Source: Polychytrium aggregatum
Lineage: Eukaryota > Chytridiomycota > Chytridiomycetes > Polychytriales
Assembly: GCF_025602895.1 (NCBI RefSeq)
Contig: NW_026516241.1
Location: 186,001-250,000 of the forward strand
Direction of reading: 5' to 3'
Length of the DNA stretch: 64,000 nucleotides
Shown here: positions 29,139 to 64,000 of the stretch, one piece after another
Position numbering within the stretch: the stretch's first letter is position 1
Layout of the letters: every line of letters begins with the position of its first letter
Notes under the pieces: model-generated
What the model saw: only the letters and a program-made list of their open reading frames with translations
The model's database searches: none
Told to the model about the DNA's origin: nothing
Translations under genes and position numbers: made by a program

Positions 29139-29760
29139 GCCCTTACCGGCGATCCAATAGAAAACGAGACACCTGGGTTTTGACCACTGATCAAATACCA
29201 TCACACACTGGCCATGATCATTTGTCAGAGTGTCCAAGAGCACCATTCACCACTGGCACTCCGAGACCAGTGCAGCGACCCACAAGCAGGTCACACTTCG
29301 TCGACCCACAACTCTACTCTGCTCCAGCAAGCCACAGAGCTGATCCAGCCCATCGTTGAACGCAACCCTTTCCAGTCTGGTCCAATGATTCGCTGTCTAC
29401 TCGAGTCCACTCTCCAGAGAAAAGTGTCGCTCTCGCTCTGCCACACTGCCATCCACCGAGCCGGTTCCCTCACAAGAGGCTGCAGAACCTCTACAAACCC
29501 AAGCGACTGGATGAGCGAGTGACGCAGTTCAGGGACGAGATCCACTCCATCGACCCACATCGGATTGTCTTTGTCGATGAGACGGGCATTCGACTGTTCA
29601 TGTTTCCTCTCTGGATATTCCGAGAAAGGTGCCCGACTGCAGAGGCGCCACAACATGAAGCACAAGAAGACAAGAACATCCTCGACACCTATGACCTGTA
29701 TCGAAGTGCATGGAGTGAGACGTGTATCCTGCCTCCTGTGTCCCTTCCAAAGGGTACTGC
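29139..29760 (+). mobile_element. Decayed Tc1/mariner-IS630-like transposon
   Basis: The first 95 bases match 1497-1606 at about 75-80 percent with small gaps. Then a broken transposase follows in + orientation. The helix-turn-helix part (ATELIQPIVERNPFQSGPMI) is in one frame. The catalytic part with the first Asp (PHRIVFVDETGIRLF) is in a second frame from about 29470. A GYSEKGARLQRRHN block is back in the first frame from about 29610. VDETG is the typical first DDE/D motif of Tc1/IS630 enzymes. Two frameshifts make it non-functional. The distal catalytic residues are not recognised. Confidence 0.65.
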
Positions 29761-29761
29761 T

Positions 29762-30130
29762 TCATGTCCTCACATTGACTGTTCCTGTCTGCACCATATT
29801 GAAACACTTTCGAACAAACGAGGGTTCACTAGACGACACTGCGGGGAGGGTGATGCCCTCGTCCAAGCACCGCCTGAGATGCAGCTCCAGGAGACGAGAT
29901 GCTTCGAACTGCACGTGTGTCATGGCTCGGACAGTCTCCTCGATCTTGTCGTGCAAGGTGTCGTTCTTGATGATGGCGTCGAGGGTGCACTTGACGGTGG
30001 AGTACTCGGCCTTTAATTGCTCGTTGGTCGTTCCCCAGCGTCCTTGTTCCATCGTCGCCTCTCGATTGCCTCCTCTTCGCGGAGAAGCATTGGCAACCCT
30101 GTTCCAGTCTCCGCCCAACAACAAAACCAT
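29762..30130 (-). pseudogene. Possible Fanzor N-terminal fragment
   Basis: An ORF of about 120 codons on the minus strand, abutting the Tc1-like relic, contains EYSTVKCTLDAIIKNDTLHD, VRAMTHVQFEASRLLELHLR and LPAVSSSEPSFVRKCFNMVQ. This order (a VK-L start, an Ile-rich turn, a long helix with a His/Leu-rich face, LP, then F-R-CF-V) resembles the N-terminal recognition-lobe region of Fanzor proteins. A probable start is MEQGRWGTTNEQL. The RuvC part is missing, and the frame stops at 29762, where the transposon relic begins. This assignment is from remembered pattern, not alignment, so it is moderate. Confidence 0.45.
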
Positions 30131-31260: not shown

Positions 31261-31663
31261 CAATTATTATGACTGCTGCAAATCAGCTTGGACAGCTGAA
31301 TATAAGAAATTGTTCGCTATTTACAGCCATTTCCGTCGCCTGGGGAGCGGTTCTGTCCAAGAGGCAAAGCAGTCGGGAGAAGTCGGAACAGGGGGCCGAG
31401 CCGTACGGGAATGGGTTTGTGCAACCGCGCTAACACTAAGAAATTCTGTGCGGAGACGACACGGAAATTCGAGCCAATGATCTGGGTCCAGGATGAGTCG
31501 TTATGACTCGCTTTGAACCTGCTGATCTGGTCACGGGTTTCTCAGCTTGGGCAGCATAGGTGGCCCCAAATTTTTCATCGTGGCGCTAAGGACACAGGAG
31601 ATGATGATCCGGTCAGAAACGGTCCAGAGCGTCCGCGGCAATAGCACGCCGATTCGCACGGTT

Positions 31664-31757
31664 GACCACGGCTCAGTAAGGGTGCCCTGGGGGCGATTTC
31701 ATTCAAGGTTGTTTATGAAGACCGTCGTGATTGATTGGAATAACATCACAAGTGGTC
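31664..31757 (-). ncRNA. Box C/D snoRNA, snR73-like copy b
   Basis: Boxes in RNA sense: C GTGATGT (31749-31743), D CTGA (31676-31673). A perfect terminal stem GACCAC (31757-31752) with GTGGTC (31669-31664) encloses them. The internal guide TCACGACGGTCT (31730-31719) is complementary to LSU rRNA AGACCGUCGUGA, the region of yeast 25S Cm2959, target of snR73. The D' box next to it is degenerate, so the methylated base is not fixed by eye. A second possible guide lies before box D with no target recognised. It sits where snR72 would be expected from yeast order. Confidence 0.82.
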
Positions 31758-31953
31758 CTAAAATGCATATGCAGGCAGCGTTGATAGGACTCATTGAGGG
31801 TGCTTACCTGAGAAGGATCCATAGTGGCAGTAGCAAGGTGCCAGCGACGCCGAGGCTGCCGGATGAGACTCGGGATCTGATGAGGAAGCAGAGCGCGGGG
31901 AGTTAGGCACGAGCACGATCACAAGAACTCGGCGACCGGTGTTCCAGGCGCAG

Positions 31954-32049
31954 GCATATACGACTCAGTAAGGGTGCCCTGGGGGCGGTTTCATTCAAGA
32001 TGATTATGAAGACCGTCGTGATTGATTGGAATAGCATCACAAGTATAGC
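31954..32049 (-). ncRNA. snR73: Box C/D snoRNA, snR73-like copy a
   Basis: Boxes in RNA sense: C GTGATGC (32040-32034), D CTGA (31968-31965). The terminal stem is TATAC (32047-32043) with GTATA (31961-31957), extended by GC/GC past a bulge. It carries the same LSU guide as copy b (32021-32010), and the core of about 80 nt is nearly identical while the stems differ. Its 3' end is 77 nt before the acceptor at 31876. Confidence 0.85.
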
Positions 32050-32234
32050 TCAGGGCGACGAGAAACAGCGGGTGCTGACTGTGGGACGGAGACTGACCTG
32101 CAGGGGAGGAGTGGCACTGACCAGCAGGGCGTTCTCCGTCGAGAACTGGTGCACAAGGCAGGCTGGCTGGACATTCAGGATCGCGATTAATACCAGATCG
32201 AGAGCGACGGCCCAGTCCTGGCTGCGCTTGACAG

Positions 32235-32319
32235 GGTGCTTGTCAGACGTCAAAACTGTCCACATGGCGATTCAGACATATGCTTGTCTACTTGTTTTGG
32301 AATATCATCGCTCAGCACC
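32235..32319 (-). ncRNA. snR74: Box C/D snoRNA, snR74-like (SSU Am28)
   Basis: Terminal stem GGTGCT (32319-32314) with AGCACC (32240-32235). Box C GCGATGA (32311-32305, one mismatch), D' CTGA (32275-32272), D CTGA (32246-32243). The 13-nt guide AGACAAGCATATG (32289-32277) before D' is fully complementary to the 5' end of SSU rRNA, CAUAUGCUUGUCU. The fifth base before D' falls on A28 of yeast numbering, the snR74 site. Confidence 0.9.
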
Positions 32320-32436
32320 TGATGATCGGCGATGGGGCTGTCCAGACACTCACGCTGTTCGTTCCTGGATCACAGTACACAAATGGTCAGCATCGAACGG
32401 TCTCGGCCCGCGTTCCAAAGCGGAAACAACCCGCAG

Positions 32437-32531
32437 CCTCTTTGCTCAGTGTTGCATGAATGGTAGTTAAAGGGTTTGTCCGCATCGATAACTCGTCAGA
32501 CTCGTCATCTAAAGAGTTCATCATAAAGAGG
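32437..32531 (-). ncRNA. snR75: Box C/D snoRNA, snR75-like (LSU Gm2288)
   Basis: Terminal stem CCTCTTT (32531-32525) with AAAGAGG (32443-32437). Box C ATGATGA (32524-32518), D' CTGA (32499-32496), D CTGA (32449-32446). The guide before D', TTAGATGACGAG (32512-32501), is complementary over 12 nt to LSU CUCGUCAUCUAA. The D'+5 rule points to the G of CUCG, yeast Gm2288. Confidence 0.9.
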
Positions 32532-32679
32532 GCATCATGTGTGTTGGACCAGAACAGACTCGCCACTCACCATTCACTCGGGCTGGGGAAGCAGATGCAC
32601 TTGGATCACCCTGAAAAGTCACAGCAACGTTAGAGCCATGTGTCTGCAGAGGCCACTCGTCAAGCAAGCGGCTGCGATT

Positions 32680-32773
32680 CAGCATCAGACAATGCACATT
32701 CTACATATTTGTTCAGTGCCCAGTGCGCTTACACACGCCAAGTTGTCAAGACTCGGCGTGGCATCAGTTGCTG
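32680..32773 (-). ncRNA. snR76: Box C/D snoRNA, snR76-like (LSU Cm2197)
   Basis: Terminal stem CAGCA (32773-32769) with TGCTG (32684-32680). Box C CTGATGC (32767-32761, weak), D' CTGA (32716-32713), D CTGA (32688-32685). The guide before D', GCACTGGGCA (32726-32717), pairs over 10 nt with LSU UGCCCAGUGC. The D'+5 rule gives the third C, which is yeast Cm2197 when counted from Gm2288. Weaker boxes than its neighbours, but target and order fit. Confidence 0.75.
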
Positions 32774-32934
32774 GCGATGAAGAAGGGGGGTTTGGGCAAA
32801 TCACGTACCTTTGAATGCGGTTGGCGGCATGAGTCGCTGGCATTTGTTGTGTACGGAGTGAAATGGCCTGAACTGCACAGTCTCATGGTTAGCGAGCGGC
32901 CTGAAATCCGAGCGACACGGACAAACTGCGCCGA

Positions 32935-33020
32935 GGTGGTACTCAGAAGCCAATACGTCATCACTATGTATCAGCCGGTAATTCCAGCTTAAAGTATTGT
33001 GTTGTCTCATCATAGCCACC
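32935..33020 (-). ncRNA. snR77: Box C/D snoRNA, snR77-like (SSU Um578)
   Basis: Terminal stem GGTGG (33020-33016) with CCACC (32939-32935). Box C ATGATGA (33013-33007), D' CTGA (32974-32971), C' TGATGA (32963-32958), D CTGA (32946-32943). The 14-nt guide AGCTGGAATTACCG (32989-32976) is complementary to the universally conserved SSU 530 loop, CGGUAAUUCCAGCU. D'+5 points to the U of GGUAA, yeast Um578, the snR77/SNORD65 site. Confidence 0.94.
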
Positions 33021-33194
33021 CGTTTCGGAGTGCACAAGCATCGGCTCGGGTTGGATACTTACAACAGGAGCCGCACAGAACGGGCTTGTGGGTGTGCGAG
33101 CCGAGTGGTCTGGCTTCTGAGCAAAAGCGATGCGGCGGTTAGCAAACGTCGATAGACGCTGGGTCTGCGCTGCCAATCGTCGGCCGGGCAGTTC

Positions 33195-33277
33195 TAACGT
33201 TCAGAGACAGAGGCTATAATCACTGGGATTCAGAGACTCTAGTTTATGTGATCAATGTCGAAGGTCATCCTTGTTTG
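33195..33277 (-). ncRNA. snR78: Box C/D snoRNA, snR78-like (LSU Um2421)
   Basis: Box C AGGATGA (33271-33265, one mismatch), D' CTGA (33233-33230), C' near TGATTA (33222-33217), D CTGA (33204-33201). The 11-nt guide AAACTAGAGTC (33245-33235) pairs with LSU GACUCUAGUUU. D'+5 points to the U of GACU, yeast Um2421. The terminal stem is weak (AAC with GTT), so the ends are approximate. Confidence 0.82.
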
Positions 33278-33526
33278 CCTGGCTGGTTGGCGCAGAACAG
33301 GGCCGGACACTCACATCGAATAAAGAGGCCAGGCGGCGGGGACTTGGTGCCAGCCGCGGCTACCGTCATCTGGAGCGAGTGCTCATCGGGGTGGCGGTGC
33401 CGGAGAAGCGCCGGCGACAGCCGATGCATACGGCAGCACAACAGGGCAGCATTCGGGATCCGAGCGTCTCCGCAGGCCAAGACTGCAGCGGGAGATGCGA
33501 CAAAGAAGGGGACCGTGCGCTGTCGG

Positions 33527-33535
33527 TTTTTTATA
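33527..33535 (-). promoter_or_regulatory. TATA box of the snoRNA host gene
   Basis: TATAAAAAA in minus sense, about 210 nt upstream of the first recognised donor (33314). Confidence 0.5.
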
Positions 33536-33691
33536 GCGTCGATTTCATTTCGTGCTGATCGGACGGGCGGCGTGGCTTGTGCACCACATTAAAGCAATAT
33601 ATCCACTTTTGGACAACTGCGCAGCATGCTGCTGCGCGCCAGCCGTTGTCTCTGTTGCTGTTTCTCGAACAGGCCAGGCTGCGCACGCTGC

Positions 33692-33740
33692 TCTCGCCCG
33701 CGTCTCGTCTGCATCTCGTCTGCATCTCGCCCGCGTCTCG
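33692..33740 (+). repeat. CGTCTCGTCTGCATCTCG-type tandem repeat
   Basis: Imperfect repeats of CGCGTCTCGTCTGCATCTCG in the leader region of the next + gene. Confidence 0.65.
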
Positions 33741-60196: not shown

Positions 60197-63100
60197 CTAA
60201 GATAGCCCACAACTCAAATCGTAAACGGAGATGATTCCATTGTCAGAAACCATGGCGATCCTGCGTCCAACAATACGGAGGAGCTCGCTCGAGATCTCCT
60301 GGGAAATCCACAGCAGTTTGTCCTTTGTCTTGGTTTCGACAATCCATCGCTCCTGCTCAATGGTTTGCAACTGGAGTTCGGGAACAGTTTGATCTTCTTT
60401 GATCATATCCTCCAGCTCCTTGTCCATCGCAAACTCTTCGAATATCAAGCAGTCTCGATCGAGATGACTGATTTCGTAGGCACTGAGTTGTGTTGCCAGC
60501 TTCAAGGTTTTTCTCCCCCCAGCTGCGACGGGGACTTCCATAGAATTAACGTCGAACACCTTGGCGAACTTGTTTCCCAGAGTCATGATGAAACGGCTGT
60601 CTTTGGAAAACAAAATGTTCATCATGGTTCCCGTGAGACCCTCAATGTACCGAGCATTTTCCAAATATGGAAGATCCCACAGAACGGCTGTGCCATCCTC
60701 TAAACGAGCCGCGAGTAATTTTTCGTCCGGAGATATTGTAAGGGAGTTGGCCAAAAGGTGCTGTGGGGTGGGTACATCAGTACTCCTGTGGTCAGCGCAA
60801 GTCCACACTTCGACGGTTCCGTTATATCTTGCGACGGCGCAAATATTTCCCTTGGATGAGAGCTCCAGACAGTGAGCATCTGATTTAGCGCTTTCATTTT
60901 CGGCTGCAATTTCTTTGTTGGAGAGTTCCCAGATTGTGATATGTCCAACTTCGTCACTTGTCGCAAGCAACTCGCCACTTGGGGAAAAGTTTACAGACCA
61001 ATTGGGAGCGCCTTCGCCTTTGAGACATCTTATGCACTCCTTGGTTTCGAGATCCCAAATATTAACATTAGATGTTTCAAGGCCGACGGCAATCCGATTG
61101 TTGATGGGACAGTATGCCAGAGATCGCACCGAGAATGCGTTGTGGAGAACTTGTTCAATCTTCCCTGTTTCGATAGAACATATTTGTACTGATCCATCAG
61201 CTACGCCGATGGCAAGAAACTTGTCATCCGAAATAAAGGCAATGGGATTTATGGACTTGGTAGTTTTGTTATCATCAGGGCTTCGAAGCTTCTTGGAGGT
61301 TTCAGTTTCCCAGTTCCACAGGATCACGCAGCCGTCCTGGGAGCTTGAAGCGATGGTCTTGCCGTCAGCCGAGAGCTTCACAAATCGAACAGGAGCTTCG
61401 TGCCCCTTGAGGGTTTTGATACACTTTCCAGATTCACTGTCCCATATCTTGACAGTTTTGTCTCCGGATGACGACACAATCTTCTTGCCATCCTTTGAAA
61501 TACACACGCCAATGACCTCATCGGCGTGACCCTCGAGCGTACGCAACAGTTCTCCGGTTTTGAAATCCCAGATCCGGATGGTGCGGTCGTCACCACAAGA
61601 TGCCAGCAGGCACCCATCATGGGAAACGTCAATATTCCATATCCCTTCATCATGACCTTCCATCGCACTCACATAATTTGTGGTTGAGAGTTCCCAAACC
61701 TTCACCAAACTATCGTCGCAGCACGAGACGAGATAGTTTTCGTCTGGAGAAAAGGCAACCGTTGCCACACATTCGAGCTGAGACTTGAAGGTGGCCATAC
61801 GAGTTCCCCAGCTCCCTTGAAGTGCAATTACAATTTTGCAATGTGATTCCGATGGAAGGAGATGCTGGCGGAGCTCAGACGATAGGGGACATTGTGCCAG
61901 AATGGTTCTGTAGAGATCAGCGGGATCTTCGAGAATGGGGATTTGATATTTTCGAAGCATTCGCTGAACATCCTTCAGTAGTGTTCGGGTGGTCTCTGTT
62001 ATGCCTTTGAGGTATTGAGCGTTTTGAAGGATATCAGGCACTTTGAAGAGTTGACCCAAGCGAGCCATGACTTGAATCCAGTAGAGTATCGTCGTTGTCG
62101 CAAACTGCTGAAGGAGCTTGGGATAGGCTTCGAAAAACTCGCTGAGGGGCACATCATTGTGAGAGGCCTGGATCACAGAGTCGTCACTTCCGTGGTTCGA
62201 GCAAAACTCGATGACTTCAAACAAATGATCGGCCCAGTATTTGCAGGCATATTCAACCGAAAATGGCAAAATCGATCTGAAACTAGCATCTCGATCAGTT
62301 GAGAGCATCATCCAATGGAGGCGAAGATGAATATTGAGTGCCTTGTTTGGAGGCGTGACGGTGTTGCTATCGCTTTGGTTACGATTCGATTTGCCGTATT
62401 CTTCATACGATCCCTGGTAATGATAAGCCGGTCTCTCTTCGGTGAGAATTCGGAGGCAAGCAAGGGCCATTGTCGCGTGGTAATCCTGAAGTCGAAGCGG
62501 AGCTTGGCCCCTGTTGGCAAGAGAGTCTTGAGAGGAATCAAGTGCGTCTTTGATAGATTTGTGACTTCGTTGGTATTTGCGCACCTTAGGAATTGCCTTA
62601 TAAGCATAAAACTGCTGATTATCCGCTCGCATTTTCGGGTCGAGAAGGATGTATGGCACTTCATGATTCGCAGCCGCGATCGTTCCACTCTTCTCAAGAT
62701 ACTCAGTCATGTCCTGGATAGTTCGGAGCTGACGGTCCAAGAACATCACAATATGTCTGCGACTTATTCCTTTCGAGGCGAGGTAGCAACAGAGCTGGTG
62801 GCGCTCGTTGTCCAAAAGCAAGCGAGGACTTTCCTCATGGTCGCTGAAATACAGCCAATCCAAATCCCCAGGCTGAACATAATCCTCGGGCATGAGCTTT
62901 CGTGAGATGATCGGATCTGAAAAATTTTGGGCCGCTTGCGCGAGTTGAGAAGATACAAAGGACAAGAATTGAGTCATCGATATGGAGTGGCTGTAATAGA
63001 AAAAGTCTCTCAGGTCCTCATCGCCTATTGCCTCAAAGGCAACGAGGACGGTCGATATCGTCTGCGGGAAGATTTCGCCAAGGTCGCTCGGCATTCTCGC

Positions 63101-64000
63101 GCTGGTAACTTGCAGGAGGTCCCGGAAGACTTGATCAAGTTCAGCGGCAGGGGTGAATGATTCGGTGGCCAGCCAAGTGGTACCTTGTGCCATTTTATCT
63201 CTGATAGCGTTAATTGCGAGTTTAATCCAGAGCATTCTTCCCTCTGACTTGGTGATGATTTCTGTGATCTGGGATTTGTTGAAAGCTCTCATCTGGAATT
63301 TGGCCGCTAATCCGCGAGCATATATGGTCAGGTCATTCTCAACCGATTTTTGAATGAAACCTGGATCAAGATTCGAAAGCTGAAACTTGCTCATGGTTTT
63401 GCTTGCGTTATATTCCAGGTGAGCCCTGGTAGAATGGATTTGTTTCGATTCCAGCTGTTCGTAAATATATCCGCTTGTTCGGGAAGTCAGAATAAGCTGG
63501 ATATTTGGCGGGGCCACTTCTCGGAAGGATCGAATGAATCCAAATACTTTTGCTTGGATTGTCTGGGGGCATTCATCCAACGAGTCAACCGTGATTACGA
63601 TCGGGCATGACAGAGCCTTGATTCTTGGGAAAGCAGCAATTAAAACTTCGAATTGATGGCGGATGTTGTGGGCTGAGTAAAAGCCATCAGCGCCACTTGT
63701 TTTGTATTTGACAATCCCCAACAAAATATCGTAGGCCTTTCTGTCTGGGTGCTGTCTCTCGGACATCGGGGCGCTGGAATTGTCGAGGGGGGTTTGATCG
63801 TTAAAAGGTACTTCTGGTAATTTACCTTGACTGGGGTTCAGGCGCGCCAAAGTTGCAAGCCTGGTATCCAATTCGTGATCTTCAAGATGTTCGATCTCAT
63901 CAATAATCTTTGTGATTTCCTCAAGATACGTTCGATAGGCTTTACTCTGCTCAGCCAGTTGAAGTGCCAAGGAAGTGACCATGTCGACACGATTCGGCTT
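60197..64000 (-). CDS. NACHT-WD40 STAND NTPase (fungal NLR-like), N-terminus outside window
   Basis: A single open frame to the window edge; the ATG at 63982 is internal, since the frame continues upstream as NRVDMVTSLALQLAEQS, the usual stretch after the P-loop. The Walker A motif and effector domain lie beyond the window. Walker B reads CPIVITVDSLDECP (about residue 125 from that Met), followed by LILTSRTSGY (sensor 1 region). A helical linker of about 500 residues leads to some ten WD40 repeats, for example CGDDRTIRIWDFKTGELLRT, SSSGDKTVKIWDSESGKCIK and SSSQDGCVILWNWE. Such proteins act as ligand-triggered switches in fungal self/non-self recognition (HET-E type) and innate immunity. It is intronless and more AT-rich than its neighbours. 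Confidence 0.9.
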   Translation of the reverse strand, partial: KPNRVDMVTSLALQLAEQSKAYRTYLEEITKIIDEIEHLEDHELDTRLATLARLNPSQGKLPEVPFNDQTPLDNSSAPMSERQHPDRKAYDILLGIVKYKTSGADGFYSAHNIRHQFEVLIAAFPRIKALSCPIVITVDSLDECPQTIQAKVFGFIRSFREVAPPNIQLILTSRTSGYIYEQLESKQIHSTRAHLEYNASKTMSKFQLSNLDPGFIQKSVENDLTIYARGLAAKFQMRAFNKSQITEIITKSEGRMLWIKLAINAIRDKMAQGTTWLATESFTPAAELDQVFRDLLQVTSARMPSDLGEIFPQTISTVLVAFEAIGDEDLRDFFYYSHSISMTQFLSFVSSQLAQAAQNFSDPIISRKLMPEDYVQPGDLDWLYFSDHEESPRLLLDNERHQLCCYLASKGISRRHIVMFLDRQLRTIQDMTEYLEKSGTIAAANHEVPYILLDPKMRADNQQFYAYKAIPKVRKYQRSHKSIKDALDSSQDSLANRGQAPLRLQDYHATMALACLRILTEERPAYHYQGSYEEYGKSNRNQSDSNTVTPPNKALNIHLRLHWMMLSTDRDASFRSILPFSVEYACKYWADHLFEVIEFCSNHGSDDSVIQASHNDVPLSEFFEAYPKLLQQFATTTILYWIQVMARLGQLFKVPDILQNAQYLKGITETTRTLLKDVQRMLRKYQIPILEDPADLYRTILAQCPLSSELRQHLLPSESHCKIVIALQGSWGTRMATFKSQLECVATVAFSPDENYLVSCCDDSLVKVWELSTTNYVSAMEGHDEGIWNIDVSHDGCLLASCGDDRTIRIWDFKTGELLRTLEGHADEVIGVCISKDGKKIVSSSGDKTVKIWDSESGKCIKTLKGHEAPVRFVKLSADGKTIASSSQDGCVILWNWETETSKKLRSPDDNKTTKSINPIAFISDDKFLAIGVADGSVQICSIETGKIEQVLHNAFSVRSLAYCPINNRIAVGLETSNVNIWDLETKECIRCLKGEGAPNWSVNFSPSGELLATSDEVGHITIWELSNKEIAAENESAKSDAHCLELSSKGNICAVARYNGTVEVWTCADHRSTDVPTPQHLLANSLTISPDEKLLAARLEDGTAVLWDLPYLENARYIEGLTGTMMNILFSKDSRFIMTLGNKFAKVFDVNSMEVPVAAGGRKTLKLATQLSAYEISHLDRDCLIFEEFAMDKELEDMIKEDQTVPELQLQTIEQERWIVETKTKDKLLWISQEISSELLRIVGRRIAMVSDNGIISVYDLSCGLS

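What the first reader, a model, noticed from the sequence alone, without database searches (positions are those of the whole stretch)
31436..33505. A seven-member intronic box C/D snoRNA cluster in the order of yeast snR78-snR73
Seven C/D RNAs, one per intron, were read directly: boxes C/D/D', terminal stems and 10-14 nt rRNA guides. The targets are LSU Um2421, SSU Um578, LSU Cm2197, LSU Gm2288, SSU Am28 and the LSU Cm2959 region (twice), by the D+5 rule and yeast numbering. In S. cerevisiae the same guides form one intron-less polycistron in the order snR78-77-76-75-74-73-72. Here they are intronic, as in mammalian multi-snoRNA host genes such as GAS5. If right, gene order has been kept while the mode of expression changed. 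The exons show no recognisable protein, so automated annotation would call this region empty or a junk ORF.
Basis: partly seen in the sequence, partly recalled or inferred. Interest (0 to 1): 0.95.

Follow-up and report, generated by a model that had tools for sequence, protein, structure and literature searches.

The report
Intronic snoRNA cluster in a chytrid
A chytrid fungus carries, inside the introns of one apparently non-coding gene, the same row of small guide RNAs for ribosome modification that is already known from many other fungi; it is a good, real example of a known arrangement, with one guide duplicated.

Summary
On the minus strand, 33.3-31.6 kb, seven box C/D snoRNAs sit one per predicted intron. 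With rRNA strings from printed oligos and one rDNA fragment, the D+5 rule gives exactly seven hits in the region, in the order snR78-77-76-75-74-73-73; 300 simulated regions gave a mean of 0.08, at most 1. All seven introns have GT...AG ends; six have a CTAAC or CTGAC branch site. A hand-joined neighbouring gene identifies Polychytrium aggregatum, Chytridiomycota. The joined exons show no coding signal or homologue.

This is 'cluster I', reported as intronic in Euascomycetes, Basidiomycota and Rhizopus, with gas5-like non-coding hosts in Neurospora; the intron-less Saccharomyces version is derived (PMC3596301, PMC2780460, passages). What may be new is the chytrid record and a second snR73 where yeast has snR72. 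The copies are 73/78 identical in the body while flanks and terminal stems diverged with pairing kept, so both are probably functional. They share a D-adjacent element whose target I could not find. The organism's own rRNA could not be reached; expression was not testable.

The parts
33529..33535 (-). TATAAAA, the only exact copy in the window, 20-30 nt upstream of a C/T-rich putative start at 33502-33511
   Evidence: 0.88 copies expected by chance in the window, so suggestive only; sequence; start site inferred
33315..33510 (-). host gene exon 1 (5' end inferred)
33117..33314 (-). intron 1 (GTGAGT...CTAAC...CAG) holding the snR78 homologue
33192..33262 (-). snR78 (SNORD52-like) box C/D RNA; D' at 33233; guide to LSU Um2421
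33063..33116 (-). exon 2, 54 nt
32873..33062 (-). intron 2 (GTAAGT...CTAAC...CAG) holding snR77
32935..33020 (-). snR77 (SNORD65-like); D' at 32974; 14-nt guide to SSU Um578
32809..32872 (-). exon 3, 64 nt
32611..32808 (-). intron 3 (GTACGT...CTAAC...CAG) holding snR76
32678..32773 (-). snR76; D' at 32716; guide to LSU Cm2197
32571..32610 (-). exon 4, 40 nt
32365..32570 (-). intron 4 (GTGAGT...CTGAC...CAG) holding snR75
32438..32530 (-). snR75 (Rfam RF01185 above gathering score); D' at 32499; guide to LSU Gm2288
32354..32364 (-). exon 5, 11-nt micro-exon (a downstream AG would leave 1 nt; the exact junction is uncertain)
32146..32353 (-). intron 5 (GTGAGT...CAG; weak branch site TTAAT) holding snR74
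32235..32319 (-). snR74 (SNORD27-like); D' at 32275; guide to SSU Am28
32098..32145 (-). exon 6, 48 nt
31877..32097 (-). intron 6 (GTCAGT...CTAAC...CAG) holding snR73 copy a
31957..32047 (-). snR73 copy a; degenerate D' (CATA) at 32008; guide to LSU Cm2959; D box at 31968
31808..31876 (-). exon 7, 69 nt
31586..31807 (-). intron 7 (GTAAGC...CTGAC...TAG) holding snR73 copy b
31664..31757 (-). snR73 copy b; D' (CATA) at 31717; guide to LSU Cm2959; D box at 31676
31301..31585 (-). last exon (3' end not determined; 31301 is an arbitrary cut)

Best explanation
This is the Polychytrium aggregatum version of fungal snoRNA gene cluster I. One apparently non-coding host gene is transcribed from the minus strand, presumably by RNA polymerase II; its introns are spliced out, the lariats are debranched and trimmed by exonucleases, and each intron leaves one box C/D RNA protected by its snoRNP proteins. 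The RNAs direct 2'-O-methylation of rRNA at the equivalents of LSU Um2421, SSU Um578, LSU Cm2197, LSU Gm2288, SSU Am28 and LSU Cm2959, the last served by two tandem paralogues. The exons are only a carrier. Shown by sequence: the snoRNAs, the guides, the splice signals, the lack of coding signal. Inferred from established snoRNA biology: transcription, splicing, processing and methylation.
For: Rfam matches; seven of seven D+5 guide hits in the known order against 0.077 expected and at most 1 in 300 simulated regions; the LSU target nucleotides agree with the LSU rows of the yeast modification list in PMC8307265 (passages; its SSU rows for these sites were not seen), SSU Am28 and the snR77 site with guide assignments in N. 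crassa, Am28 also with a cross-eukaryote table; seven GT...AG introns, six with CTAAC or CTGAC 20-31 nt from the end, and 9 5'-splice-like sites in the region against a mean of 2.5 in 200 shuffles, with a pattern drawn up after seeing the sites; no coding signal: a 167-codon open frame is equalled in 252 of 2000 shuffles and the longest ATG frame of 61 aa in 1412 of 2000, no protein match at E up to 1, no Pfam match at E up to 1. The two snR73 copies keep 73/78 identity in the body while flanks fall to 33/63 and 53/103; their terminal stems differ in sequence yet both pair (UAUAC/GUAUA and GACCAC/GUGGUC; read by eye).
Against: Six of seven snoRNAs do not reach an Rfam gathering score, and the matches on snR78 and snR76 are at or near chance level. 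The rRNA strings come from yeast, metazoa and a contaminant rDNA fragment, not from this species; the own-genome search did not complete. No RNA reads were available. Intron 5 lacks a good branch site and the 11-nt exon 5 is uncertain. The snR73 D' box is degenerate (CATA), and C boxes of snR78, snR76, snR74 and snR73 depart from consensus (by reading).
Confidence: 0.94

Rival explanations
1. An intron-less polycistron as in Saccharomyces, cut by an RNase III between snoRNAs, with the splice-like sequences accidental.
For: The same snoRNA order is expressed that way in S. cerevisiae (PMC5033589 passages).
Against: All seven snoRNAs are flanked by GT...AG pairs at similar spacing and six of the seven introns have CTAAC or CTGAC 20-31 nt from the end; Euascomycetes, Basidiomycota and Rhizopus are reported as intronic.
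Confidence: 0.03
2. The host is a protein-coding gene whose product is lineage-specific.
For: A frame of 167 codons stays open from exon 1 into exon 8.
Against: 252 of 2000 shuffles do as well; the only ATG in that frame is in exon 7, with 54 codons left, and ATGs in exon 1 precede it; no homologue. Codon usage and ribosome occupancy were not tested.
Confidence: 0.06
3. A decayed copy of the cluster, with the working one elsewhere in the genome.
For: Own-genome copy number could not be tested; some boxes are degenerate.
Against: All seven guides, D boxes and splice ends are present, and the two snR73 copies are conserved inside the snoRNA and not in the intron flanks.
Confidence: 0.03

Closest known systems
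Fungal snoRNA gene cluster I (snR78-77-76-75-74-73-72), Euascomycetes, Basidiomycota, Rhizopus (PMC3596301, passages)
   Same: same snoRNAs and order, described as all intronic in those groups, with poorly conserved spliced exons of little coding potential
   Different: no snR72 in its slot (the paper reports it lost from the cluster in most fungal species); snR73 occurs twice; the paper also reports loss of snR76 in Rhizopus and scattering or loss of members in some Basidiomycota, whereas six are together here; chytrids are not named in its main text
Neurospora crassa cluster I (PMC2780460, passages)
   Same: homologues of snR78, 77, 76, 75, 74 and 73 are all listed on chromosome VI, five of the six rows seen as 'Intron' (the snR76 row was cut off in the passage); non-coding gas5-like host
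   Different: in N. crassa the snR78 and snR72 guides sit in one double-guide RNA (CD5); here I found no snR72-type guide, but the rRNA stretch around Am876 was not among my strings, so this was not properly tested
Saccharomyces cerevisiae snR78-snR72 polycistron
   Same: same guides and order for six members
   Different: unspliced, cut by Rnt1p between snoRNAs (PMC5033589 passages); attributed to loss of splicing signals
Mammalian GAS5 and UHG snoRNA host genes
   Same: works like them: one snoRNA per intron of a non-coding host gene
   Different: different snoRNA content (recalled; PMC2780460 says the same of Neurospora); resemblance of mode, no evidence of common descent of the host

Membership tests
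box C/D snoRNA | C (RUGAUGA-like) and D (CUGA) boxes brought together by a terminal stem | tested here: met
   seven of seven by reading; motifs located; C boxes of snR78, 76, 74 and 73 are imperfect; pairing read by eye without energy or shuffle test
box C/D snoRNA | guide of about 10 nt upstream of D or D', fifth nucleotide on a methylated rRNA residue | tested here: met
   seven of seven, runs of 9-14 nt, on rRNA strings of other species; snR78 has only 9
box C/D snoRNA | binds the box C/D core proteins and directs methylation | not testable with these tools
   needs RNP capture and RiboMeth-seq
fungal snoRNA cluster I | snR78-77-76-75-74-73 in this order on one strand | tested here: met
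fungal snoRNA cluster I | snR72 as last member (reported lost from the cluster in most fungal species) | tested here: inconclusive
   the seventh RNA is a second snR73; the rRNA stretch of Am876 was not available to test for an snR72-type guide elsewhere
non-coding snoRNA host gene (UHG/GAS5-like) | one snoRNA per intron | tested here: met
   by splice signals only
non-coding snoRNA host gene (UHG/GAS5-like) | spliced exons without a conserved long open frame | tested here: met
   no second chytrid genome was available to compare the frame
non-coding snoRNA host gene (UHG/GAS5-like) | spliced transcript observed | not testable with these tools
   no RNA data

The most novel reading that the evidence does not exclude
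Cluster I with one snoRNA per intron already existed before chytrids split from other fungi, and in this lineage the snR72 position is occupied by a second snR73.
Probability: 0.3. Interest if true: 0.4.

Novelty: new member of a known kind. Interest (0 to 1): 0.25.

Why it matters
It gives an ordered six-guide cluster I in a zoosporic fungus, which supports the published view that the one-snoRNA-per-intron state is ancestral and the yeast polycistron derived. It is also a two-copy system (snR73a/b) for asking what a duplicated snoRNA keeps. At this locus Rfam gathering scores recover one of seven members, so snoRNAs of chytrid genomes may be under-annotated; I tested only this window.

Tried and rejected
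Own-genome search for LSU rRNA (genome search, where 'own', RF02543) was sent 19 times in the same form and never answered. rRNA strings from papers were used instead. One pattern scan of viral contigs for eukaryotic LSU found nothing; the one genome-contig scan found four contigs that carry the snR75 target stretch of LSU, none of the other guide targets, and no Rfam match at gathering score.

Second guides: the 20 nt upstream of each D box were compared with 42 printed yeast rRNA oligos (1330 nt, part of the rRNA only; G-U pairs allowed). The shared snR73 element had no run above 8; snR77 and snR74 had 10-nt runs, which I do not count as targets. snR75 has a further 10-nt complementarity just downstream of its target site, in a stretch also conserved in the Rfam snR75 model.

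Protein-coding host: rejected on shuffles, Pfam and homology. The bacterial promoter scan of the upstream region was uninformative. One search was read in the wrong frame and gave nothing; one search repeated it in the right frame.

Papers: PMC3596301, PMC2780460, PMC5033589, PMC3511168, PMC8476143, PMC8307265, PMC3036644, PMC9275221, PMC3154480 and PMC3626359 were seen as passages only; PMC8044721 as passages and one section; PMC4517788 (a correction notice) in full; every other paper only in search listings. The papers by Mitrovich and colleagues (Science 2010) and Canzler and colleagues ('The fungal snoRNAome', 2018) are not held, so I cannot say whether the latter already lists chytrid members of this cluster.

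Full report
What was claimed.

Organism. A neighbouring gene (26.3-28.8 kb, minus) encodes axonemal dynein intermediate chain 2: a 93-aa frame matches solved DNAI2 chains (best E 1.3e-33), and the hand-joined exons match a Polychytrium aggregatum protein at 100% identity and coverage of the 406-aa query, on a 438,330-base contig; the next fourteen entries of the list (120 shown of 1487) bear names of other chytrids, at 76-81%. The identification rests on this one gene. The species is in Chytridiomycota, Polychytriales. The window's GC content is 56%.

The snoRNAs. Rfam at gathering score reports one match in the whole window: snR75. A permissive scan of 31300-33700 lists 17 matches: 12 on the places of snR78, snR77, snR75 and snR74, one at chance level on snR76 (snoR118, E 8), none on the snR73 copies and 4 elsewhere (E 0.47 to 5.5). 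The good ones are snR75 (E 4e-13), SNORD65 on snR77 (E 4e-6) and SNORD27 on snR74 (E 2e-5); those on snR78 are weak (E 0.044 and 0.49). The equivalences U27/snR74 and U52/snR78 are listed in PMC3511168 (passages) and HBII-135/snR77 in PMC2780460 (passages); that SNORD65 is HBII-135 is recalled.

Guide test. I could not reach this organism's rRNA. I used strings printed in papers: yeast 18S depletion oligos (PMC8044721), metazoan 28S primer #6 (PMC4517788), an arthropod 28S primer (PMC9275221), a conserved 28S primer (PMC3036644) and the LSU end on contig L001. Requiring a CTGA, CATA or CATG box, the fifth upstream nucleotide paired and a run of at least 9 Watson-Crick pairs, the region has exactly seven hits, one per intron, in the order snR78, 77, 76, 75, 74, 73, 73. 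Three hits of 9 nt occur in the rest of the window, both strands, none at a CTGA box. In 300 first-order Markov regions the mean was 0.077 and the maximum 1. The test leans towards the finding in two respects: the six strings were chosen because they hold the expected targets, and the CATA box was admitted because I had seen it in snR73. snR78, with 9 nt, is the weakest of the seven.

Site numbers. SSU A28 follows by counting from the 18S 5' end in the printed oligo. For LSU, the spacing in the strings agrees with the yeast list in PMC8307265 (passages), counted by hand: Psi2416/Um2417/Um2421, Psi2191/Cm2197, m5C2278/Am2280/Am2281/Gm2288, and, in yeast oligo 25S-15, Am2946/Cm2948/Cm2959. The number SSU Um578 is recalled; the site itself is paired by 14 nt.

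Introns and host. Seven introns of 198, 190, 198, 206, 208, 221 and 222 nt separate internal exons of 54, 64, 40, 11, 48 and 69 nt. All have GT...AG ends; six have CTAAC or CTGAC 20-31 nt from the end, and intron 5 has only TTAAT. The region has 9 5'-splice-like sites against a mean of 2.5 in 200 shuffles; the pattern was drawn up after seeing the sites. The single TATAAAA of the window lies on the correct strand 20-30 nt upstream of a C/T-rich stretch (0.88 copies are expected by chance in 64 kb, so the place, not the presence, is suggestive). The joined exons hold a 167-codon open frame, equalled by 252 of 2000 dinucleotide shuffles; the longest ATG frame is 61 aa, equalled by 1412 of 2000. 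The 167-aa frame has no Pfam match at E up to 1 and no homologue at E up to 1 among 129 candidates. I conclude that the host is most likely non-coding.

The seventh RNA. Its slot is that of yeast snR72, but it is a second snR73. The two bodies are 73/78 identical; the intron flanks are 33/63 and 53/103 in global alignment, which I take as background for unrelated sequence, without a control. The terminal stems differ in sequence but both pair (UAUAC/GUAUA and GACCAC/GUGGUC, by eye). So I infer that the duplication is not recent and that both copies are maintained. They also share an identical stretch of 18 nt next to box D. No run above 8 nt was found for it in 1330 nt of printed yeast rRNA oligos, which is only part of the rRNA.

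Prior knowledge. PMC3596301 (passages) defines cluster I as snR78-77-76-75-74-73-72, calls it all intronic in Euascomycetes, Basidiomycota and Rhizopus oryzae, reports poorly conserved spliced RNAs with little coding potential, loss of snR72 from the cluster in most fungal species, loss of snR76 in Rhizopus, scattering or loss of members in some Basidiomycota, and de-intronization through splice-site degeneration in Saccharomyces. The words chytrid and Batrachochytrium do not occur in its main text. PMC2780460 (passages) reports the N. crassa cluster with RT-PCR and compares its host with gas5. PMC5033589 (passages) reports five cluster I snoRNAs in introns in Candida, with splicing seen in RNA-seq. 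My paper searches on chytrids, Polychytrium and snoRNAs (12 of 12 listed, 15 of 279, 12 of 8253) listed no paper on this locus; two searches showed only part of their hits, and the main survey of fungal snoRNAs is not held. So I do not claim that the chytrid cluster is unpublished.

Verdict. The mechanism is most likely the ordinary one for intronic snoRNAs. The proposed novelty is in print, with the direction of change the other way round. What may be added is a chytrid record with six members in order, an snR73 duplication and an unexplained conserved element in both copies.

Noticed in passing
31957-32047 and 31664-31757 (-): Both snR73 copies share an identical D-adjacent stretch GCCCCCAGGGCACCCUUA with no target found in partial yeast rRNA; possibly a second guide or extra pairing element.
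   Followed up: partly
32438-32530 (-): snR75 has a second 10-nt complementarity (CCAUUCAUGC) to LSU just downstream of its target site, in a stretch also conserved in the Rfam model.
   Followed up: partly
32354-32364 (-): An 11-nt micro-exon, or 1 nt if the next AG is used, between the snR75 and snR74 introns; alternative or stepwise splicing is possible.
   Followed up: no
60197-63982 (-): Large WD40-repeat protein; the predicted 1857-aa protein of the same contig (P0001) also lists PF24883. The next-best match by score has 29% identity over 37% of the query.
   Followed up: no
29360-30016 (+): Open frame with a motif that recalls a DDE transposase (DPHRIVFVDETG, recalled resemblance); no Pfam match at E up to 1.
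   Followed up: no
33968 (+) onward: A possible divergent gene starting MADLKTKKALFELQNQD, opposite the snoRNA host promoter; no Pfam match for the 53-aa stretch tested.
   Followed up: no
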